Both the position numbers and the translations under genes were made by a program. From contig NC_092676.1 of the NCBI RefSeq assembly GCF_964355755.1, positions 9,530,288 through 9,594,287 of the forward strand: a DNA stretch of 64,000 nucleotides, in the 5' to 3' direction. How positions within the stretch are numbered: position 1 is the first letter of the stretch; every line of letters starts with the position of its first letter. Shown in pieces: positions 7,901 to 64,000 of the stretch. The notes under the pieces are model-generated. The model ran no database searches. It was given only the letters and a program-made list of their open reading frames with translations, and was not told the DNA's origin. Origin of the DNA: Antedon mediterranea. Its lineage: Eukaryota; Echinodermata; Crinoidea; Comatulida; Antedonidae.

Positions 7901-10900
7901 ACGAAAGTGATTAATTTTAAAACAAAATAACATATTCAAAGTCTGATTTATTTAATCTTCATTTCCATGTTTTTGGGGGACAATACATCTTTAACATAGG
8001 CCATAATTTTAGCAAATTCATTTCTTAACGTAATCATATTTTTGCATATTCATCTTTTGTATACTGTATTAATTTCTTAGCATATTATTTCTTAACCCGT
8101 ATTCATTTTTTTAAAACATTCATATCTTCATTTCTTGTCATGATCATATTTTAGCACATTCATTTCTTAACATGTTTGTTTCTTAACATCATCATAATCT
8201 TAGCATGATAATTCTTTGGTTTTTTTTTTTACTCGGGGTAATCTAGTCTAGGACTCTCTCATCTTCTCCTCTTCCTCCTCTGGACACTATTGAGCCAACT
8301 TTCAAGTCATAGTTCTTTTTGCGTCGTATGACGACTCTGAAACTTGGCGTGCATATACTAGGGTAATAGGTGAACAAAGCTATAGAGAGAAAATGTTCGT
8401 ACTTCAACCCGATGCAAAACGAATGCAGAATTATGAAGTCATAAACATGGTACCAATCGAAAAAAGGTGCGATTTATAAAGTACTAAACTCCTCCCTTAT
8501 TCGTTGTAGTATTAAGCTGGGATTTGGCATGGGTATACTACTCAAAGCTATAGAGCCGGATTTTTTAATTTCAAACCGGATGCAGCCATATGACGTCTCG
8601 AAGATGGTACCTTGGTGGCAAACGATTTTCGTCGTAATATAGCCGTGTTTGGTGTCATTTCAAAGGTCCTGACTTGGAGAATAAGAATATATACAGTAAA
8701 ACTATTATTATATTGTGACGTCACTTCTGCTTACGGAAATAGCAAAAGAATCGGAACAATTTGCCAAAACAACATAATTTCAGGAATTATTTGTATACAT
8801 TGCATATAATCAGTTTCGATATAAATGAGAAATCATTGCATTACAAATGTAGATGTGATTTGAACAATTTCGCTCCAAACTGACTTTACAGTTTCATTTT
8901 TTCTTGTCTTTTTACTATCAATTATCATATGACAACCGTAAGTGAATCAGAACCTTGTCCAGGACTGCAGCATACACTTACAAATCATAGAATACAATCA
9001 AATTTAGCGCACATAATAGACGACTTCTGCCGATCACATAACACACTGGTCACACTGAATAGGACAGTAGGCATATTCCATTGGTGACCTTTTCACTCCA
9101 GCAACTTTAATTTTACTCCCTGATAGATGTATGTCATGTGGAGAGACATACCTATTCGAATGAAGAAAGAGATGTGTATATACCACAATATCGGGCATGC
9201 CATCCCGATTAGTGTGAATGAATGGACAGCCGAGCCTGAATATATAGAATAGACCCATCTAAGGTGTGTGAGGTTATTGATGTGTATGTGACATTACATC
9301 CCGTCTTATGACGTCATTACAGCTTCTTTTGCACTGTACCCCGAGTATCGCACATTTGTGCTTGTTTATTTCTTAACGTATTCATTTCTTAACGTAATCA
9401 TTTCTTCTTAACACATTCTTTTCTTAACACATTCTTTTTTAATGCATTCATTTCACGTATTCATTATCGAAGTATATTCAATTCAATGTTAATAAACTTT
9501 TTTAGATAAATTAATTAATTTCTTGAGTTATTGTTAGATTTATTATTTTTCATTTTCTGTTTCCGTCGGAAAACTCCTGCTCGTGGTACATCTGTAGAAT
9601 TCTGGTTAGCAGGGACATCACCAGCCAAATTGCCTGTAAGGAATAAATACAATGTCTTCATTTTGTTTTTAATAATAGTACTATTTGTATTAGTGAAAAA
9701 AACATAATAAAATGCATGTTTATTTTTATATAATAAAATAAATTACCTTCGCTTGGCTTGCAGCTGGGAACAGCATTTTTGAAAGTCTTACTATCCTTTT
9801 CATCTGTCCATGTTGACGACAATAATGCTGTAACGAATAATTTCAGAGACAATGCCATTGGTGATATCATTGGAAGTGGTGATGTTTTCTGAGATTACAG
9901 AATCCTTTGTGACGACTTTGCTAACTTTGTCCTTATTGATGATGGCAAGGCTATTAGGGACAACATCTCCAATGTAATCCTTCACTTTTTTAGTGACCAC
10001 GACAACATCTGGGGTACTATCGTCAAGAGGCATGTTATTGTCAAAGACTTTTATGGCTGCAGCTGCTGCCTAGGTGGTGAAATCCAGTTCACTGACCTTT
10101 CTTTTACTTTCTGCATCTTCTTGCACATGGTTCTTAATATCTTTAGAACCACTGATGCATTGAGGTTCATCAATAATGTCATTCAGGTCTGTAAAATGCA
10201 AACATTGTGTCACATTTTGTACATTATTACCTTCATGTAGGGTTTTAAAAAAATTGTGAAAATAAGAGAAATAATTAGATTGATTGTAATAAGTACCTGA
10301 AAGTGCATCATAAAATATCTCATCATCGCTCTCATCATCATCGTCTCTCCAATCACCATCAAGTGACGGTTTTGACTTCTTCGGCATATCTTCAACGTTT
10401 TTCTCAACATCATATTTCGAGTTGATTTTCGTGGAACTGGGATGTCTTCACAATGAGAAGCCTGTAAAATTAAACGATGAATATGGGTATATAAAGCAGC
10501 TTACACTACTAAAAAATGTCCATGTTCTTTTTAGGAAAGAATCGTTAATTGTTTACCACACAACCATTTAATTACATTTACACTATTTAAAATTCCTTGT
10601 AAAATGTATATAAAATTCATAAAACGGTCAAATGAGGCATTACAAAATCAACTTTAGGATATGGCCATCAATTGAGAAAAATTAAGTTGAGATACACTAA
10701 ATCCTGTGAATAACAGAAAAAAAAAAATGGCACTATTGTATGATGTCTGTACAGTCTATTTTTGTCCTTCAAAATGTTCTGTGTCATATTTTTCACAGAT
10801 GCACCTATTATTTTGGTGTTGCCAATGAGTTTCTTGGCCTCTTTTACAATATTGTCATCACCTTGGATTGAATGTGCCATCTTGTTTACCCTTTTTTCGC

Positions 10901-13900
10901 TAATTTTGGTGCAACTGGTGGCTTAATATGATGAAACTTGTCCTCTTTTACAATATTGCCATCACCTTGGATTGAATGTGCCATCTTGTTTACACTTTTC
11001 TTCGCTGATTTTGGTGCAACTGGTGGCTTAATCTGATGAAACTTGTCCTCTTTTACAATATTATTGTCATCACCTTGGATTGAATGCGCCATATTTTTTA
11101 CACTTTTCTTTGCTGGTGTTGGTGAAACTGGTGGCTTAATCTGATGAAACTTGTCCTCTTTTAAAATATTGTCATCACCTTGGATTGAATGCGCCAGCTT
11201 TTTTACACTTTTCTTTGCTGGTTTTGGTGCAACTGGTGGCTTAATCTGATGAAATTTGTCCTCTTTTACAATATTGCCATCACCTTGGATTGAATGCGCC
11301 ATCTTTTTTACACTTTTTGTTGCTGGTTTTGGTGCAACTGGTGGCTTAATCTGATGAAACTTGTCCTCTTTTACAATATTGCCATCACCTTGGATTGAAT
11401 GCGCCGTCTTTTTTACACTTTTTGTTGCTGGTTTTGGTGCAATTGGTGGCTTAATCTGGTGAAACTTGTCCTCTTTTACAATATTTCCATCACCTTGGAT
11501 TGAATGCGCCATCAATTTTACACTTTTTGTTGCTGGTTTTGGTGCAACTGGTGGCTTAATCTGATGATACTTGTCCTCTTTTACAATATTGTCATCACCT
11601 TGGATTGAATGCGCCATCTTTTTTACACTTTTTGTTGCTGGTTTTGGTGCAATTGGTGGCTTAATCTGATGAAACTTGTCCTCTTTTACAATATTGCCAT
11701 CACCTTGGATTGAATGCGCCATCTTTTTTACACTTTTTGTTGCTGGTTTTGGTGCAACTGGTGGCTTAATCTGATGAAACTTGTCCTCTTTTACAATATT
11801 GTCATCACCTTGGATTGAATGCGCCATCTTTTTTACACTTTTTGTTGCTGGTTTTGGTGCAACTGGTGGCTTAATCTGATGAAACTTGTCCTATTTTACA
11901 ATATTGTCATCACATTGGATTGAATGCGCCATCTTTTTAACACTTTTTTTGCTGGTTTTGGTGCAACTGGTGGCTTAATCTGATGATACTTGTCCTCTTT
12001 TACAATATTGTCATCACATTTGATTGAATGCGCTATCTTTTTTACACTTTTCTTTGCTGGTTTTGGTGCAACTGGTGGCTTACTCCTGTGCCGAGGACGT
12101 TCAACCTTTGGCTTAACTGTCAAAACATTGATGCTGGTCTTCGTAGCATCGTCTTCTTGTGCCTTGTTCCACATGGAACCTCGATATTAGTTTTAGCCCT
12201 TTGATGACATGTCCGAACGTTTCGTTTACAATTATGTCTGCAAATATTAAATAAGGATAAGTACACTGTAAAGCTTCCTAGACAATTTATCTTCTGGTCA
12301 TACAAAACTAATATAGGTCTATTCTAATGTGTAAATATTTCCACAGTGAAGAAATTGATCGTGTCCAAAAAAAATGTCATTCATTTAAACTATTATATCT
12401 ATTTATATAAAAGTTTCTAAATGATTTCTCCACTCACCACGGTTCGTTGGATCCTTTTCCCCCATTATTTTTCCGCAATAGCTTAATTAAATCGATAATA
12501 ATTACGAATACTAGAGGGTTCGCTCGCTTCGCTCGCGCACCCTCACCAACGCCTCTGGAAATTGAAGCCCGGGTGACACCTATGCATATGAATAATATAC
12601 GGCTAATTATTATATTTGGTCTTCCGCCGAATGAGTGTGTGAGATTTGAACCTGTACTAAAAATAAGTTTGGTAAGATGCGAAATGTATACCAATTATGA
12701 TTGATTATGTCCCCTGTCAGTAGTGATATGGACACTTGACAGCAATCGGTGGTTATAGGAACGTAAAGGGGAAAAGTTACTCAATAGATTTAATTATTTG
12801 TAGACAAAATGTACATTAATTCTCCTGTAATGATGTAAAAACTTTACCACAATTGGTATTACACAACAATTGGTTCATAAGAACGTAAGCTGCAAATAAT
12901 ATAATTGTAAAGAACAGTATACGTATAAAATACATATTATTTTATTATATATATTATCTGAACGTTACACATAGGAGGAAAATGTTAATAGGGGTCATCA
13001 ATCACTGAAACAGCCTCTAACGTGACCGTACCAAGAGACCAAAAGCATAGTTTATCAAAGTGGGTGACAGTGAGTGGTGCTTTAACATTTGTATCACAAT
13101 ATATCATGACAACAGCATCTTGTTAATTTTGAAACAAAATGATCAAATAACAACTTTCGTAGCCTACTTATATATCGGTCGTAGTAGACACCATTTATAA
13201 TTATAAATAGAGCAAGCAACAGAAATAATCGATAATATAAACAGTAAAGGTGTTTCCCTGGTAGGCCTACCTGAATCGCACCTAAATTTGATTGCATAAA
13301 TAATTAGCACAATTAACCTCCTATAGTAACATTGAATCGCACCTAAATTTGATAAAATGATTAATAAATAGCATAAATAATAATTAGTTCAATTACTAAA
13401 ACAAATTGTATTTCACGTAAAGTAAAGGCCTTTATAATTCATTAGTTGAATATCTAATACAAATAAATTGTAGTTCACGATTCAGTTTAATCACTAATAT
13501 CACATTGTAGTTCACGTAAAAGTAAATGCTTTCAATAATAGTTAAATTACTAAAAAAAATTGTAGTTCACGTAAAGTAAATGCCTTTTAGTTGAATATCT
13601 AAAACAAATTAATTGCAAGTAGTTCACGATCAGTTGAACCACAAAAATATTTGTATTTAATATTGAACTATTGAATGTCGCCACCAACGGCCATTTTGCA
13701 GGAAGTGACGGACCCGGAAGTCAGTTGAACAACAGCGCGAGTGTGTGAAAATAACCCTGTGATATCCACAAGTTTCGATAGGTATTACGCTAAAGTTTGT
13801 CGTTGTAAAAGACAAAAATGAAACAATAGCGTAGTACTGAAAACTAATGTTATCAAATCTACGTTTCGCGGTACATCTAAGATAGATAAGGTAGATATCC

Positions 13901-31927: not shown

Positions 31928-33130
31928 AAGATCCATTACAACAATTTTTACGCATGTTAGAACACTTTGTCTCGTCATGGATAAAACCCAAGATCACGCC
32001 TAAATTAGACGAAATGCAATTTGGAAATCGCACAGGAGCGTCTACAAGTCACTATCTTACTAGCATGTTACACTATTTACTTCAAGGTCTTGATAAACCT
32101 GGACACGAAGCAACGGTTATTGCAGTTGATTTTCGTAAAGCGTTTGACCTAATTGATCATACAATCGCTGTCAAGAAGTTAATTGATATTGGAGTTCAAC
32201 CTGAATTGATGCCGTGGATTTGTGATTTTCTGAGCGAACGTAAACAGAGAGTGAAACTCAATGGCGGTTTTTAAAACTGGCAAGGAATAACTTGCGGAGT
32301 TCCTCAGGGGACGAAACTGGGTCCCTTAATTTTCCAAGTAATGGTTAACAATTCGCTTAGAGAATTCCCAAATCGGTGGAAGTATGTAGATGATTTGTCA
32401 ATATGTGAAGTTCACAACAAGAAAACCCCGCCTAATGTTCAAGATCAATTAAACGAACTATCACAATGGACCAAAGACAATAATATGATAATTAATATTG
32501 AAAAAACTAACTTTATGAACATTTCTTTTGCCAAATCTCAACCCATTGTTAAATCATTTACGATAAATAATATAAAAATAACCAATGTTGAATGCTTAAA
32601 GTTACTTGGGGTTCAGATCACTAATGATCTGAAATGGAATATGCATATCCACGATGTTGTTAATAGAGCCAGTAAGAGATTACATATGTTGACATGTTTA
32701 AAAAGATTTGGAATGCCTTGTAACCATCTGCGTCAAATGTATATTAGCCACATAAGACCTGTAACTGAATATGCGTGTCCGGTATGGCACTCTGCTTTAA
32801 CCATAGCACAATCCATGGAGCTTGAATCTATACAGAAACGCGCATGTAGAATAATTCTCGGACAAAAATATGCATCCTATGATCAAGCAATTAAACTACT
32901 TAATCTTAAATTTTTAGATCAAAGAAGAGAAGATATTCTTCTTGATTTTGCTAAAAATCTTAACAAAATCGTTCCTAACGCACTTCCTAAATTGAGAGGC
33001 GAAACGTGTGGCAGGATACTTAGGAATGCTAAGAAGCAAAGTGAAATATATGGCAATACTAAAAGATTCAACAACTCATGTTTCCCAGCACTGTGTAGAC
33101 TAATTAATAAACCAAAATAAACACAACAAT
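31928..33130 (+). mobile_element. Non-LTR retrotransposon RT domain, one in-frame stop
   Basis: A frame of about 395 codons carries RT motifs in order: QFGNRTGASTSHYLTSM, VIAVDFRKAFDLIDH (catalytic Asp), GVPQGTKLGPLIF, the WKYVDDLS catalytic box, and CLKLLGVQITNDLKWN, ending in a C-terminal domain (ISHIRPVTEYACPVW). The only coding lesion in this stretch is TAA at 32272-32274. It lacks the endonuclease and is 5' truncated near 31928. TAA repeats follow the stop codon and a GAAT tail lies near 33340. The family is Jockey/CR1-like by motif order. Confidence 0.88.
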
Positions 33131-39284: not shown

Positions 39285-39895
39285 GGAAGTACATTTTTGA
39301 AGAGATACATATGTATTAATTTAGATCAAAAAGGCATTTAAATTAGCTTTAGATCGTTTGTAGTATTTTGATTAATTAATGGGAACATCTCTACAAGACG
39401 TGGAATCGTTGGAAAAAACAAAATTAGCCTAGATGACTGAGTTTCGTCAGTTGCCTGTCGAAGTTTCTGTTGCCTTTCAGCCTAGCTAGGCCTAGGCCTG
39501 TTAGTATTAAGCCTAGGCGTTTTAGCCTTGCTAGGCCTAGGATTGTTTGGTCGTTTGTTGACATAATTAACACTACATTAGGTGTGTTTATAAAATCCAT
39601 ATAAATATTATATTTAATATTATTACTATACTGTTTTAATCAATGTGAATCAAATGTAGGCCTTAGGCTTACCTTTTATTTGATTCAAATGACAGGAATC
39701 TATTTAGATGTTATATAAAACAAATAACGAATGTTTTATTTGTGTAATGGTAAAAATAATGCCATTTGGTAAAAGGTTATATATCAACTCGGCTTCGCCT
39801 CGTTGAAATATAACATTTCATCATTCACCTCATGCCATTATTTTTACCATTACACTCATAAACATTCATAATTTGTATAATATGACACATTTATC
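39285..39895 (+). mobile_element. Dispersed repeat (about 0.6 kb), copy 1
   Basis: GATGGAAGTACATTTTTGAAG, TAGATCAAAAAGGCATTTAAA, CATCTCTACAAGACGTGG and ATGACAGGAATCTATTTAG all recur inverted at 52255-52985. Near its end, AATGGTAAAAATAATGCCAT is inverted as ATGCCATTATTTTTACCATT. Non-coding. Confidence 0.82.
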
Positions 39896-56800: not shown

Positions 56801-59157
56801 GTGACCGTGTACACGTTTACTCAATCTAAAAGTCCCTATTATCTTAATGTCTTGGATTAGATATTCACAGATTAGTTTGATGGTTTATCAGAATGGGGTA
56901 GTTATTTTATTACTATGAAATTGCTATTAATATTAATGTTTTTGAAATTTAATATAACTGAAAATGAAATCCTGACAGAGAGACAGTCAATTGTTGCAGT
57001 GTGTAGTGCAAGGTTTGTGTAGGTGAACATAAAACCAAACAAGCCTCATTTATCAATTACTGGTCCAAATACAGGGGGCATCTGCTTGGCGTCAATGCCA
57101 CAAAACAACATAGATATTTAACAATATAAAAACTTACCCCCTTGAGTTTATCTTTATCTTTTGTCTTCTCCACCTTGTTAATGCAACTATCATAGTCAAG
57201 CAACTTGTCATATCTCTTCTGTATAAGTTTATGTGGCCCTTGAAACATAATCAGTAGAAGGTTCAAGGGTGAAATCACTCGTTGTTGAACAAACAAGGTC
57301 TGAAAACAGATAGAGAAAATAAAAAATAAGGATATCACAATCCATTAACTGTATATTATTTCCTAACACATGTATTCAAGTTCATAGGTGGATGAAAGGG
57401 AATGAAACACCCTAAATTTGGAAAATGTAAAGATAGGTTCCTATTTCTCAAATCCTGGATCTGCCACCACAATTCCAACTCTTTTGTATAAAAACAAGCC
57501 TAAAATAAACTCACTTTTAAAGCTTTAATTTTACATTTTCTACCAAACCACTTAACATTTTAAAATAAAGTTTCATGAAAATACTGTATAAAATTAATTG
57601 CAATTTTCCTTAATTATTAATTTATTTCCATAAATATATTATGATTTGAAATCTACATGATTAAGACCACACCTTCAGGATCTATTAAAGTGTCCCTTGA
57701 AAAGGGGTTTGCCTTTAATATTCTGCCCCTCGTCGTTTCAAGTTTCAGTGTCCCCTTATAGGAGTGTTCCAAAGGAGGAGTTATATACTTACATAGTTTT
57801 TATAAAGTTTATTTGCAATTCTTTTCTGAGCTGCCTCATATTTGTTAACTTGTTTTAGATTTGACTGGTTGGCGTAATACTCTGATATGTCTCCTCCTAC
57901 AATAGCTTCAGTAGCGGTTGCATCCTTAAAAAAGATTTTAAATATTGTAAAGAGATACTGTTACGCTATGCTTATGTCGACACAGAACTCAACTCAAAGG
58001 AATTATATCGACTTTCGATCAACTGAACGGAACGAGCGATTATGTCGATACTGGAACTGATTGCAGCGGGCAGTGGTTACTAAAGCGTGTCACGACGCAA
58101 TTCACATATTATACGCACCAGTATGTGAGAGCGCTTAATATGGAAACTGATTGCTACTGGTTACCCTTACTGCTCGCATGTCGCGATTCAAAGTGTTTTC
58201 AGTTCTGAAAAAATAGTGGGGGGAGAGAAATTGAGAGGAATTGAAAGCATCTGAGCTTAATGTCTACATTTTATGTCCGCCTGTCATTTGTATTCAGTTG
58301 CAGTCATTTGCTTATATGCCGACAGTTTATTTGAGGTCCTGTATCAACATAAGCGCATCTTTATTCTGTCAAAAGCATGCATCCCTTTAGTGGAAAACTA
58401 ATAGGGTGGCAAACTAATAGGCTAGTAAATAGAAAGTCTGTAATGTGTTATAGATATACAATACCAAACTCTCCAAAACCAGACTTTTGTTTACGTTAAA
58501 AAGTTCCAAATACATTTTACCATTAAAATTATCATAACAGGAAATAGTTTGAGAGTAGTTTATGTACTGACTGCATGAGATTTATCAATATTTTCATCTG
58601 GTTTCAGTTATGATAGATTTTTGTTTTCGTCTATTAAAGTATTAAATTGGTTTCACTATATAATAGTAGAGTTTTACAAGAATTTATTGTTGTGTTTTGA
58701 TCTGGAATCACCCAAGTCACCCCATATTTAGGTTTCCAACTAAAAGCTAAAATATGTGCAATACACATCAGGATACACAATTGTAATTATTGGTTACTAA
58801 ACATGTCAATTTTCTAAAATCTCTATGTTTGGATATTATTGTTTGAAATATTCTCACCATCAAACACATAAACATTCATCATTTGTATACTATATAATAC
58901 CTAAATAGATTCTGTTATTTGATAAATGTCCGATTTTTACGCTATTTTTGTCGGTGGAAAATTGGAGAGCGCAAGCCCTTAACAGCATATAAACAACAAT
59001 GCTTTGCGCATGCCCTTTTCTATTTTTCCTGTAATAAGTATAATACACAAACCTTAAGGTGTTCTAAATATGCATTAATATCTTTCACAAATATCTTGAT
59101 GGTTCTTTCTAAAGTGTTGAACCTTTTCTCACTTTGTTCAAACTCTTCATCTATAGT
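50885..59157 (-). CDS. Tuba (DNMBP)/ARHGEF37/ARHGEF38-like protein, C-terminal half: BAR plus two SH3 domains
   Basis: Minus strand, eight exons in view, 438 aa, all junctions in frame: 59157-59053, 57924-57793, 57299-57138, 56195-56112, 54199-54017, 53595-53425, 52216-52003 and 51489-51401, then terminal 51061-50885 (nine segments including the last). The first five encode a BAR domain: [20 protein letters not shown], then [17 protein letters not shown] and [12 protein letters not shown], then [18 protein letters not shown] lysine-rich linker follows (53.5 kb exon). SH3-1 spans two exons ([30 protein letters not shown]). SH3-2 is [26 protein letters not shown] and [10 protein letters not shown], ending two residues before TAA at 50887-50885. 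Members of this family are Rho-family GEFs with DH-BAR-SH3-SH3 order that tie Cdc42 activation to membranes and actin or dynamin partners. The DH exons must lie beyond the window, past an intron that also contains the transposase gene at 61.4 kb. Which of the three vertebrate paralogues it matches cannot be settled. Confidence 0.9.
52255..52985 (-). mobile_element. Dispersed repeat, copy 2 (inverted relative to 39.3 kb)
   Basis: Shares AATGGTACAAATAATGGCATG, CGACAGGCAACTG, TCACGTCTTGTAGAGATG and TGCCTTTTTGATCTAAAT with the copy at 39285-39895 in opposite orientation. It lies in an intron of the Tuba-like gene. It includes a perfect 24-bp palindrome at 52876-52899 centred on CGATCG. Confidence 0.82.
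54423..54945. mobile_element. 520-bp MITE, TIR GAGAGGTTTTGC...TTACGAATACGATAACG
   Basis: The left GGTTTTGCAATCTTACGAAT / ACGATAACGAAAACGGATA is inverted at the right end as CGTTGTCGTTATCGTATTCG / TAAGGTTGCGAAACCTCCC. TIRs are about 50 bp. TA flanks both ends, consistent with a TA target. Intronic in the Tuba-like gene. Confidence 0.82.
55920..55995 (+). repeat. tRNA-like/SINE fragment with B-box
   Basis: GGTTGTGGGTTCGAATCCAAC contains an exact B-box (GGTTCGAATCC) and near-complete T-arm. The A-box half is not convincing and no cloverleaf closes. Probably a decayed tRNA-derived SINE. Confidence 0.45.
57958..58375. mobile_element. Possible MITE with imperfect TIRs of about 35 bp
   Basis: GCTATGCTTATGTCGACACAG near 57966 is matched inversely by CTGTATCAACATAAGCGCATC near 58340, with several mismatches. 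The interior is CpG-bearing and non-coding. Intronic in the Tuba-like gene. Confidence 0.5.
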
Positions 59158-59199: not shown

Positions 59200-60095
59200 A
59201 TTATAAATACATAATGTACAAAAAAAATTACATTCTGTAGTGCAAAATTATCATTATAGCTAGAGAGTACTAGAAGTTTCAAAACATTCCTCTCAAATTG
59301 TATTGTTTAGCACGATGTTCCACAAACTATGGGCCATGGTTATGAGTAGGGCCTATGTGGTTTGAAAAACATACCAAACGCCATTGATGTGCGGCTAAAC
59401 TTTCAGTGACATGCGTCTTTTGTGTTACAAAAGTTTACCTTCCGAAATAAATTACAATGCAATTTCCAGAGACCTACAGATCCATATTCTATACAGTAGA
59501 TAGATTATAACTTTGGTCCAGTCGGATAATTCGGCCCGGCTTGGTCCCGGAAACCAGATTTTAGGCAGCGAAATAAAAAGTTTGCAGACACAAAAATTAT
59601 ACTACACAATTTATTTTTAAATATCAACAGTGTTGCATTATGAGATCATATGAAAAGTGGAAAAAAAGTTAGCAAGATAACTAGGCAATCTTTGTAAACA
59701 TGTTAAAGGCTCAGGCTCACTATACCAACACGAATATGAAAAACCAATGTCGCCTATAATTACTGTGTTATATATATAAAACTATGCACTAAAAGTGTGT
59801 TTTAAAGCGTTATGACGGTACAGGAAACGTTATTCTTTGTATTGGCCAAGTTTTATTTTGAAAATCCTTGCCCTTAAAAAATAATGTCACTTTAAACTTC
59901 ATGATATGACACAAAACCGCCTGTCGCCGGCCAATTTCATAATATTCACTAGTGTAAAAATTAAATATAATCCCATTTATCATTGTAAATACTGTATATT
60001 TTGGAGCCTTACCTATACATTTAATGCATGTAAGTGAAATTTTGACAAAAAATGAGTTTTATTTAAAAAAATTCTTCAATTAAATATGTCGCACA
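59200..60095. other. Gene-free stretch, likely intron
   Basis: No exon of the Tuba-like gene was identified here. It contains a GGCCCGGCTTGGTCCCGG patch near 59530. The left boundary of the transposon carrying the 61.4-kb gene probably lies here, but I could not find a terminal repeat. Confidence 0.4.
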
Positions 60096-60101
60096 AATGA
60101 C

Positions 60102-61220
60102 GTAACTTACGTTACAGACTTTAAAAAATGCATTAAATATCAATTAATAATTACCTATAAAAGTGTTTTTCTTCGTATTATATGTGATTTGTACTCTTGA
60201 TAACGATTATATTGCTTGCGCGGATGAAATATAATGTAAATACGTTATAAAATTGCCTGGAAAGTGTTAATGAAAAACGATTGGTTAAGCGATGTAACCT
60301 ACGTTACCCCATTTCTTCTTAGGATCCGGTTTGTGTACACACATGTTATAATAATTTATAAGATTAGTTACGTCAAGTTTAATTTTAAACTGATTATTTT
60401 GTTGTTGTTTTAAGATTTAATTATTTGAGCCTTTGAAGTTCATTTGAAATTTACGTTATGGTAACTTACGTTACCATATATATTGTTACTGATGAGTTTT
60501 AATATTATGGACATTTCTAAGGAATACAGATATTCTTATGATCAAGAAAACGCCCTCTGACACAATAAAAAGTTTTAACCATGTGATTCGGCAGACAGCG
60601 GCAATTTTGACCACGTTTTTATAAATACGTCTTCACAATTTCATAGTTTATTCGTCATATCAGATTTTCGAGTATATTTTAGTAAGTATTCAAATGCTTA
60701 ATTCACTAAAGATCATTTAGAACAACTTTCATAATGTTCATAATTTAGGAAATTAGACAGATATGCAAGTATGTTATTACATTGTACAATTTACACTAGT
60801 AAGCTAGCATAGGCAACAACGTAACGTAAATTACACTACATGTAACGTAGGTTACCATTTTATATACCTCATTTCTAAGACGTCTTGTTTTTTTTCTACT
60901 CAGTATATTCAAATAATTTAAGTTATATTATACAGGCAATAATGAACATTACCTCCAACCGGAGTTGATTTTATTTAGGGTTATTTTATGGGAAGTTTCT
61001 TTGCCCTTGATACTATGGTAACGTAAGTTTCACATTGATGTTGTATGTCTATGTTGTTGTAACATTACCGAACATAGCAATGATATTAAGATAAAATCTG
61101 TGTATATATGTTTATGAATATTCATTGTCAAACGTATGTCATGTACCTGGATACATCTTGTGTCTTTGTAATATTGATACTCACAAGTATTAATAGTAAG
61201 TTCATGGTAACGTAAGTTAC
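60102..61220. promoter_or_regulatory. Seven copies of the 14-bp quasi-palindrome GTAACKTAMGTTAC
   Basis: GTAACTTACGTTAC at 60102 and 60461, and GTAACCTACGTTAC at 60294, are in one orientation. GTAACGTAAATTAC at 60821, GTAACGTAGGTTAC at 60842, GTAACGTAAGTTTC at 61018 and GTAACGTAAGTTAC at 61207 are in the other. Half-sites GTAAC and GTTAC are constant. The array ends 135 bp before the transposase-like ATG. This fits subterminal transposase-binding sites or a repeated operator for the gene. Function is inference; the repetition is direct observation. Confidence 0.75.
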
Positions 61221-61354
61221 ATAATTTACTACATACAAAGTCAATGTATTTTTTTACATTATGGTTATTTAAAATGTAAAAATATAATTTAATATTTGTT
61301 TATTTCGATTTAATACTAATACATTTTGTTAAACACTAGGTGACACTGGTGATA

Positions 61355-64000
61355 ATGGTAAAGTCACGAGCCGAGATTCAGGCAGCGTATCGGGAACGAC
61401 AAAAAGAGAAGCGAGGAGCAGAGTACTTGCAAGCAGAAGCAAGACGTGTAATGAAATACTATGTTCCGTCAGCAGAACTTACAACAAAAGATAGAAATGC
61501 ATGGAGAGCGACGGTGAAAAGAAGAGTACAGAAACATCGGAGGTACGTGAAGCAAGTTCAAGCCCAACTACAAGTACAACACCCAGAAGAAGCTGACGAA
61601 CCTAGTAGTAGTAATGATGATTCAGCCATATCTTCCGATGTGGTTTTACCAACTTCTCCTCTACGCATCAAGATGTCGTTTAAGAGACGTATTTCTACTC
61701 GAAAACGTGTTGGCAGAGCACTAAGTCGAGCCCATCGTCGCATCGAAAAATTAAATCTGGAGTTACAGAAAATGACCAGACAAAAAAAAACCATAAACAA
61801 GCGCTATAAAAGAGCTCTGAAGAAAGTAAATAAGAATTGCATCCCATCTACCAGTCATGACTCGTCCATGAGTAGTACTGACTCTCCAAGATCGAAAGCA
61901 AATCAGGATTTACGAAATGCAGGTACGTCACGAATGAATGTACTGTTTTATTCACGCATAATTATTATTAATAATGATAATATTGGCTATTTATAATATA
62001 GAGCAAATATCCACAAAATGTACTCAAGGCCTTATAAATGATAACTTGTTCCATGTCGTGTATGGTGATGTGAATATACGTATTTTCTTTTTCTGCCCAT
62101 TACATGCCGCTTAACCCATTATCTTCCTGAAAATATCAATTGAGATAATATTTAAATATTCTAAACCGTACTTAATTTAGTATTGATGTAATTTCCAATT
62201 TTCTAGGTATGTCACCAAGATCAGTACCCAAAGGGTTGAAAAAACAACTCCTGCTTTCACATGCACTGCTTGATGAAATAAGAGAGAGCACAGAGATAAA
62301 TCAAGGGCAGAAGGCCAGAAGAATGATTAGCAATGTTCTATCTGGAAAGATAATCAAGAAATACAGGTTAATCGCGCGTGTTTCAAGGGAGTCGGGCCTT
62401 GGTCAACGTAACCTATCCAAGACGAAAAAGCAAGGAATCACAGCTGCGAAGTATGTAAAAAAGGCGTGGGGAGTTCTTCATAATGAAGTATTAGGCTTCA
62501 TGGAAAGAGATGACAACTCCAGGATGATGCCAGGAAAACGAGATGCCTGCAAAACATCTTCTACCAAAGAAAAACGCCAGATAAGATACCTCAATGATTA
62601 CATGATGAACTTGTTTGCCAAGTACAAAAGTGAAAATCCCGAGCAACGGAAGGTTTCTTTTTCCTCGTTTAAGAAAATCCGACAAAGAAATGCTAATATT
62701 AAACTTGTCAAATTCACAGCAAGAAACACAAGTCTTTGCCAAAAACATCAGAACTTTGCCCTTCAGTTAAAGGTATTAAAATCTCTAGGTGTGATCACAA
62801 TCACAAGCCCCGATGAAGCAATCAAATCAATCACCGACACACAGATATCTGATCTTGCTAAACGTATACCAGATCAAGAGATCCAGTATGAAGAATGGAA
62901 ACGTGTCCCGGACAATTTCGGTAAGAAGAAAACTAAACTTGTTCAACAAAGAGTCGACAAAAGCACATTTGCAGACTTATTTGTAACTACAACTATTGAT
63001 TTCCGAAAACATGCACAACGGGTTACAGCACAATACACTGCTATAAGAGAGTGTAAAGAAAACCTGCAAGAAGGAGAATGCGTCATACATATGGATTTCG
63101 CTCAGAATTACACATGTGTGCCGATGGAAGAAGTGCAAAGAGCCTACTGGAATCAGACCGGTGTTACTTTACACCCTATAATTGCTTACTTTCATGATGG
63201 CGAAATTAAGCATCATAGCATGGTAGCGGTTTCAGACACCCGCGCACACAACGCTTCTACTGTGTTTGCAATTTTAAAGAAGCTGGTGCCAAAATTGAGA
63301 GGGATCTTGCCAGAATTAAAGACTATCCATTATTGGACCGATAGTCCAACATCACAATACCGGAATAAAACAATATTCTCCATCATATCTAATCACAACA
63401 TACTTTTCCATAATATTAATGCCAGCTGGGACTACTTCGAAGCTGGGCATGGAAAAGGGCCATGCGACGGCATTGGCGGAACAGTAAAACGCTTGGCGGA
63501 CGAAGCCGTAAAACGTGGTGCGGCAGTGATCCAAGATGCCCACGACTTCTTTGCTTGGGCTTGTCAAGAAAGAGAAAACTCACGCATAGAGTACTTTTTT
63601 GTTACTAATGAGGAATGTGTGGCTGCAGAATCGGAAATACAAATGAAATGGCCAAACATAAGACCTGTTCCCGGGACTACAAATCTCCATGCAGTGAGAG
63701 GCATCAGTGGAGAAGTGATGGTACGCGATGTATCTTGCTACTGTAGAGCGTGTCAAGAAACCTCTTCTGCTGATAACATGTGCCCCGGATGGATAGTCCA
63801 TAGCTTAACGAAACGTCAAAAGCAAAATACCAAGCAAAGCAGCAAAATTCAATTCCATGTTGATGATTGGGTATCGGCATTATATGATGAAGAATGGTAC
63901 ATCGGCAAAGTTGTTGATATAGATGATGAAGATGCGTTGGTGTCTTTTTTAAAATCTGGCAGCAGAATTAACAAGAACATATTTCAGTGGCCAAATAGTA
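61355..64000 (+). CDS. DDE-type transposase-like protein with Tudor/SH3-like C-terminal domain, 2 exons, runs off window
   Basis: Exon 1 61355-61922 (ATG, MVKSRAEIQAAYRERQKEKR), donor GTACGT, phase 1; exon 2 from 62207 (acceptor TTTTCTAG), open to the window end, at least 787 aa with no break. The N-terminus is basic with a coiled-coil-like segment (about residues 130-165). LCQKHQNFALQLKVLK (about 360) is a possible Cys/His site. Putative catalytic residues: D486 in VIHMDFAQNY, D568 in HYWTDSPTSQYRNK, and E601 in WDYFEAGHGKGPCDGIGG. The spacing D-x81-D-x32-E is close to the DDE norm. A Cys cluster follows (CYCRAC, then CPGW). A Tudor-like beta-barrel segment comes next (DDWVSALYDEEWYIGKVVDI, about 742-785). 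From general knowledge, proteins with the EAGHGKGPCDGIGG block occur in many invertebrate genomes; I cannot assign a named superfamily. It lies in the 5' intron of the Tuba-like gene, on the opposite strand. Confidence 0.82.

What the first reader, a model, noticed from the sequence alone, without database searches (positions are those of the whole stretch)
61355..64000. Apparently intact DDE-type transposase of unassigned family with a Tudor-like tail
At least 787 codons are open across two correctly spliced exons, while every other transposon in the window is broken. The three acidic residues sit in strongly patterned blocks at D-x81-D-x32-E spacing. The C-terminal segment DDWVSALYDEEWYIGKVV looks like a Tudor/SH3-type barrel, which could bind modified histone tails and steer integration. 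It could be a young active element or a domesticated gene.
Basis: partly seen in the sequence, partly recalled or inferred. Interest (0 to 1): 0.75.

Follow-up and report, generated by a model that had tools for sequence, protein, structure and literature searches.

The report
Young Sola-like cut-and-paste DNA transposon
This is a recently active jumping gene with an unbroken transposase, clear ends and near-identical copies in the same genome; it looks like a new member of a known transposon group rather than something wholly new.

Summary
The open frame is real. It belongs to a 5,372-bp element, window 59708 to 65079, so the window cuts it. Its ends are 17-bp inverted repeats, 15 of 17 matching. 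Exact 4-bp duplications flank 9 of the 11 copies whose two ends were read; 2 have damaged ends. The protein has 834 residues from two exons. Thirteen copies match a probe at 96-100%. One other copy has both exons open, both ends and a duplication; a third lacks four codons. A form missing about 1.28 kb sits at six places, two identical in sequence, so the family moved recently; domestication is not supported. E601 is A or G in 12 of 13 aligned relatives, while D610 is D in 12 of 13: the triad is D486-x81-D568-x41-D610. These features fit Sola, closest Sola2; no Sola sequence could be compared. The Tudor-like tail is shared by at least five related families; its fold is untested. Eleven 14-bp motifs flank the gene and are invariant among copies: probable transposase-binding sites.

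The parts
59708..64000 (+). Whole transposon as far as the window reaches; it continues to window coordinate 65079 (L009:1708-7079), 5,372 bp in all
   Evidence: Similarity between copies stops here on both sides with different flanks; 4-bp duplication TAAA on both sides; length
59704..59707 (.). Left copy of the 4-bp target site duplication (TAAA); the right copy lies at 65080-65083, outside the window
59708..59724 (+). Left terminal inverted repeat, 17 bp, 15 of 17 matching the right end (65063-65079, outside the window)
60102..61220 (.). Left array of the 14-bp subterminal motif GTAACGTAAGTTAC: sites starting at 60102(-), 60294(-), 60461(-), 60821(+), 60842(+), 61018(+), 61207(+), each with at most 1 mismatch; four more on the right at 64140(-), 64496(-), 64517(-), 64876(+), outside the window
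   Evidence: 0 of 154 motif positions vary among 10 aligned copies (9 at four of the sites) against 86 of 2,397 other arm positions, Fisher p = 0.009
61355..61922 (+). Exon 1 of the transposase (189 codons plus one base): basic N-terminal region
   Evidence: open in L009, L010, L011
61923..62206 (+). Intron, 284 bp, GT...AG, in phase
   Evidence: same donor and acceptor sequence in L010, L011, L012; no transcript data
62207..64000 (+). Exon 2 of the transposase as far as the window reaches; stop codon at 64141-64143
62834..64000 (.). Stretch (to 64119) that is missing from six derivative copies L013, L015, L016, L018, L019, L020; BLAST places the same gap about ten bases differently
63094..63096 (+). 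Codon of D486, proposed first catalytic residue
   Evidence: D in 9 of 9 rows: the window's protein and 8 relatives
63340..63342 (+). Codon of D568, proposed second catalytic residue
   Evidence: D in 9 of 9 rows: the window's protein and 8 relatives
63466..63468 (+). Codon of D610, proposed third catalytic residue
   Evidence: D in 12 of 13 relatives; in 7 of 8 rows with a letter there, the window's protein included
63832..64000 (+). C-terminal domain shared with at least five related families (SH3/Tudor/chromo-like by pattern, fold untested); it continues to 64140

Best explanation
It is an autonomous, recently active cut-and-paste DNA transposon, most likely of the Sola group (closest Sola2). 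Shown: a 5,372-bp unit with 17-bp inverted ends, 4-bp AT-rich target duplications, one two-exon gene for an 834-aa protein, near-identical copies at other loci, and an internally deleted form that has spread. Inferred: the protein folds as an RNase H-like transposase with a D486-D568-D610 triad; it binds the 14-bp motifs in both arms and the inverted ends, brings the ends together, cuts the element out and joins it to a target with a 4-bp stagger; it also mobilises the deleted copies in trans. The tail is a small domain shared with related families, which may bind target DNA (as the C-terminal SH3-like domain of retroviral integrases does; recalled) or chromatin.
For: 4-bp duplications exact in 9 of 9 copies tested, 9 of the 11 copies whose two ends were read; L017 and L020, with damaged ends, show none. 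Empty sites: the neighbouring repeat unit of the L018 insertion matches the joined flanks, and 38 of 40 scored rows (of 1,022 candidates) of a search with the joined L021 flanks cross the joint at 80-82% identity. 13 places match the probe at 96-100%; left end in 12 of these and in one more place; right end in 13 places plus one diverged. L009, L010, L011 differ by 0.37-0.62%. Six copies share one internal deletion, two of them (L015, L016) identical letter for letter at different loci. Exon 2 is open for 645 codons in 4 of 6 copies examined. Relatives at 24-48% identity keep D486, D568 and D610. PMC10741241 (passages read): Sola encodes a DDD transposase, 4-bp duplications, mostly 2-9 kb, inverted ends from 11 bp. 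PMC3627910 (passages read): Sola2 elements with an 888-aa transposase, 12-21-bp inverted ends and AT-rich 4-bp duplications.
Against: No Sola sequence could be compared, so the superfamily name rests on anatomy. No Pfam, NCBIfam or PHROGs match above cut-off and no credible PDB sequence match, so the RNase H fold is inferred from the pattern of conserved acids; a crude secondary-structure estimate showed strands around the first two acids but no clear helices. Nonsynonymous and synonymous codon differences among copies (11 and 13 over three comparisons) are too few to prove selection on the protein. 7 of the 13 copies have a deleted or interrupted exon 2. One C-terminal tail (L047) is only partly alike. 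No expression or transposition data.
Confidence: 0.8

Rival explanations
1. The gene is domesticated: the host has recruited the transposase for its own use and it no longer moves.
For: The frame is intact; related families keep the tail domain.
Against: It sits inside its own inverted ends and target duplication, with near-identical copies elsewhere and a recent deletion derivative. A domesticated gene is expected to be single-copy without ends.
Confidence: 0.03
2. It belongs to Kolobok, which also gives 4-bp duplications and is found in many invertebrates.
For: 4-bp duplications; Kolobok is reported from molluscs, annelids, cnidarians and others (PMC9587614, Background section read).
Against: [quoted passage not shown] None of 9 duplications here is TTAA, and no C/DxxH lies between D568 and D610.
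Confidence: 0.05
3. It is a separate superfamily, neither Sola nor any other named one, merely sharing 4-bp duplications and a DDD triad with Sola.
For: No family library used here recognises it; no Sola protein was compared.
Against: Size, inverted-end length, DDD triad and AT-rich 4-bp duplications all match the published descriptions of Sola and Sola2; the group is large in this one genome (75, 69 and 56 matches in three searches), which makes it unlikely (inference) that it escaped cataloguing.
Confidence: 0.12

Closest known systems
Sola2 DNA transposons (e.g. those of dictyostelid amoebae, PMC3627910, passages read)
   Same: DDD-type transposase of similar length (834 here, against 888 aa), short inverted ends (17 against 12-21 bp), AT-rich 4-bp duplications, element of several kb
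   Different: No Fanzor or other second gene seen: the only other open stretch of 90 codons or more in the element is a 91-codon one opposite exon 2. Direct sequence comparison was not possible; whether Sola2 elements carry motif arrays like these was not looked up
Kolobok, including KolobokP of bivalves (PMC9587614, abstract and two sections read)
   Same: 4-bp duplications, DDD/E transposase, found in many invertebrates
   Different: Duplications here are not TTAA, C/DxxH is missing, no second gene seen; long terminal direct repeats of the KolobokP kind were not seen among the repeats of the left arm and flank, the right arm was not compared for them
Gypsy-10_Ec32 of Ectocarpus, to its authors' knowledge the first reported mobile element with a Tudor domain (PMC12477816, passages read)
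   Same: A small C-terminal domain proposed as a chromatin reader
   Different: A retrotransposon; the domain there was identified as Tudor, whereas here no family model matched above cut-off

Membership tests
Sola | DDD transposase | tested here: met
   Third conserved acid is D610, not E601; by sequence conservation only, catalysis untested. Feature as stated in PMC10741241
Sola | 4-bp target site duplication | tested here: met
   Exact in 9 of 9 copies tested; absent in 2 with damaged ends. Feature as stated
Sola | Terminal inverted repeats, 11 bp or longer; element mostly 2-9 kb | tested here: met
   17 bp with 2 mismatches, 5,372 bp. Feature as stated
Sola | Transposase sequence similarity to Sola1, Sola2 or Sola3 proteins | not testable with these tools
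   No Sola protein on hand; the founding paper is not held
Kolobok | TTAA target duplications | tested here: not met
   TAAA, TACA, AATA, ATAT, AGTA, TACA, TATA, TGTA, AACA
[quoted passage not shown]
   Absent between D568 and D610; definition
Tudor/SH3-domain protein | Match to a Tudor, chromo or SH3-like family model above its cut-off | tested here: not met
   Five tails gave 7 hits, all below cut-off; 4 are to barrel-like families (that they are barrels is recalled), e.g. PF23327 with E = 0.075 and 0.034
Tudor/SH3-domain protein | Barrel fold | not testable with these tools
   Structure prediction switched off

The most novel reading that the evidence does not exclude
A Sola-group transposon, still able to move, whose transposases carry a chromatin-reading (Tudor- or chromo-like) C-terminal domain that steers integration, together with two-armed arrays of a near-palindromic 14-bp transposase-binding motif: the first cut-and-paste DNA transposon group known with a built-in Tudor-like reader.
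Probability: 0.1. Interest if true: 0.65.

Novelty: new member of a known kind. Interest (0 to 1): 0.33.

Why it matters
Neither Pfam, NCBIfam nor PHROGs has a model that recognises this transposase, and Sola elements are, to my knowledge, little studied at the bench. An element with its parts in place, plus near-identical non-autonomous partners, is a natural subject for a transposition assay of this group; it would settle which acid is the third catalytic residue and whether the shared tail domain affects where the element lands.

Tried and rejected
Pfam, NCBIfam and PHROGs scans gave no family above cut-off (relatives; tails). Weak hits below cut-off were read as chance: for exon 1 the NCBIfam model SLATT_5 (E = 0.00074, 19.1 bits against 60), for relatives EcoEI_R_C and HlyC. 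PDB sequence searches gave 4 chance-level hits for the single protein (E 1.3 or more) and none for the alignment. Searches for relatives in viral contigs and in bacterial and archaeal genomes found none that tblastn confirmed. A paper search for six guessed spellings of the HGKG.CDG.GG block gave 0 papers. Whether a Tudor-like domain in a DNA transposase is in print was asked with one search; no claim of absence is made beyond it. E601 as catalytic residue was rejected, domestication. A diverged relative of the left end (L056, about 78-81% over two short stretches) had no 14-bp motif within 3 mismatches in the 1.6 kb read, which neither helps nor harms the reading. The codon comparison was left as inconclusive. 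Other papers seen as passages only: PMC10294476, PMC10045372, PMC11071193; all others in listings only.

Rows dropped. One search reported 75 matches (73 of 174 candidates scored) and gave loci for the best 30; of L036-L051 I left out L039, L040 and L049 because they are pieces of copies of the same family, which leaves 13 relatives; the lower 45 matches were not aligned. For the alignment, 8 of those 13 relatives were used: second copies of a family (L038, L043, L048) and the short L050 and L051 were left out. In one search, 10 of the 13 fetched copies were aligned; L012, L014 and L017 were left out because an end lay outside the fetched stretch or an insertion interrupts them. In one search, 9 of 13 copies were tested for exact duplications; L017 and L020 had shown damaged ends, L012 and L014 lacked an end. 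In one search, 6 of 13 copies were examined for exon 2. In one search the tails of L037, L044, L047 and L050 were not included (the first two open stretches end before it, L047 is only partly alike, L050 was not seen to reach it); those of L041 and L045 come from a second open stretch downstream that I took to be the same gene.

Full report
What is there. The finding covers 61355-64000. Two open stretches, 61355-61922 and 62207 onward, join in phase across a 284-bp GT-AG intron. The window ends inside the gene. The genome that holds the window (354 Mb in 18 contigs, unnamed) could be searched, and the window lies at C7:9530288-9594287. With the sequence that follows, the frame closes at a stop at 64141-64143, giving 834 residues.

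Ends and copies. A probe of 801 bp (62000-62800) matched 13 places at 96-100%, one of them over 669 bp only. I fetched 10 kb around each: similarity begins at window 59708 and ends at 65079 while the flanks differ. The ends read GGCTCAGGCTCACTATA and, on the other strand, GGCTCGGGCTCAGTATA, 15 of 17 alike. Two ends were read in 11 copies; exact 4-bp duplications flank 9: TAAA, TACA, AATA, ATAT, AGTA, TACA, TATA, TGTA, AACA. L017 and L020, with damaged ends, show none, and L012 and L014 could not be read at both ends. A search with the left 394 bp gave 17 rows: 12 of the 13 copies, one further place (C4:13893230), two pieces near the L012 copy, and two rows of one diverged relative (C5:19038134). 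A search with the right 430 bp gave 14 rows: 13 at 97-100% and one diverged at 81%.

Empty sites. Joining the flanks of L018 with one copy of the duplication gives a stretch that matches the neighbouring repeat unit across the joint (score 21.5 against at most 16.0 in 200 shuffles). Joined flanks of L021 gave 40 scored rows out of 1,022 candidates; 2 are the two halves of the occupied site and 38 cross the joint at 80-82% identity, with 38 bases to the left of it. The boundaries are therefore right.

Age and activity. L009, L010 and L011 are full length and differ by 0.37-0.62%. Among six copies examined, exon 2 is open for 645 codons in L009, L010, L014 and L021, for 641 in L011 (a 12-bp in-frame gap) and for 630 with a changed end in L012; exon 1 is open in L009, L010 and L011. 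L010 thus has both exons, both ends and a duplication, though its last base differs from the others. The other 7 of 13 copies have a deleted or interrupted exon 2. Six of them share one internal deletion, about 62834-64119, and differ among themselves by 0.00-0.83%; L015 and L016 are identical over 4.1 kb at different loci with different duplications. A deletion derivative that spreads needs a transposase supplied in trans, so the family was active recently. Whether it is active today is unknown.

The catalytic residues. A protein search of the same genome gave 75 matches, from the family itself down to 27% identity. In 13 relatives covering the third acidic site, D486 and D568 are always D; E601 is A in 11, G in 1 and E in 1; D610 is D in 12, and the exception (L045) breaks frame there. 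These rows include pairs of copies of one family, about 9 families in all. In the alignment of the window's protein with 8 relatives, the acids at 486 and 568 are D in 9 of 9 rows, D610 in 7 of 8 rows with a letter, and D533 in 8 of 9. The block around W-x-F-F-A-T-S-H-G-K-x-x-x-D-G-I-G-G-x-x-K-R is among the most conserved parts of the group.

The tail. A sixth relative, L047, has a tail that is only partly alike. Five tails gave 7 Pfam hits below cut-off, 4 of them to barrel-like families (MORC2 chromo-like twice, BRWD ancillary, HAS barrel) and 3 to others. This makes an SH3-like barrel plausible, not shown. Being shared, it is unlikely to be a recent capture of this one family. A role in target DNA binding, like that of the integrase C-terminal domain (recalled), is at least as likely as histone reading.

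The arms. A 14-bp near-palindrome, GTAACGTAAGTTAC, occurs 11 times with at most one mismatch: seven in the left arm and four on the right, none within the gene except that one overlaps the stop codon. Within the 64-kb window there are no other sites with two mismatches or fewer. Flanking bases differ from site to site, so these are not tandem duplicates. None of 154 motif positions varies among the aligned copies (10 copies at seven sites, 9 at four), against 86 of 2,397 other arm positions (Fisher p = 0.009, positions taken as independent); for comparison 46 of 2,505 coding positions vary, but fewer copies cover them. I read the motifs as transposase-binding sites; a regulatory role is possible.

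Placement. Sola is described as encoding DDD transposases, with 4-bp duplications, sizes mostly 2-9 kb and inverted ends from 11 bp (PMC10741241, passages); Sola2 examples have an 888-aa transposase, 12-21-bp inverted ends and AT-rich 4-bp duplications (PMC3627910, passages). All features that I could test are met. Kolobok is disfavoured by its TTAA duplications and C/DxxH motif (PMC9587614, Background section). A relative in the same genome, L050/L051, has different inverted ends but also, on my reading, 4-bp duplications, CTAG and ATAT (from; the second lies in a run of TA and is less certain). The one defining test that I could not run is sequence similarity to a Sola transposase.

Verdict. 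A real, intact, young transposon, longer than reported, most probably of a known kind. Its unusual points are the shared tail domain and the invariant motif arrays.

Noticed in passing
L050:779-3251 and L051: A related element family in the same genome with inverted ends beginning GGGTCATTCCATGTCA and, on my reading, 4-bp duplications CTAG and ATAT.
   Followed up: partly
G000, e.g. C3:30983313-30983612: A high-copy relative whose gene is split, with a 143-aa and a roughly 189-aa open stretch, at dozens of places in the capped lists.
   Followed up: no
L036, L037, L042, L047 against window exon 2: Relatives keep a cysteine- and histidine-rich block (H..C.C..H.N and four later C, invariant in the 4-row alignment A2) that looks like a zinc site; the window's protein lacks most of it.
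   Followed up: no
window 32275-33120: Reverse transcriptase fragment (RVT_1, E = 9.8e-14).
   Followed up: no
window 10886-11890, minus strand: Long open frame made of repeats of about 35 residues.
   Followed up: no
window 58849-58922: Short repeat also present at 39685-39758 and 39839-39883, left of the element.
   Followed up: no
G000:C7:9719435-9720235: A diverged relative of the transposase lies about 125 kb from the window's end (L044, open stretch reported as 808 aa with one stop inside).
   Followed up: partly
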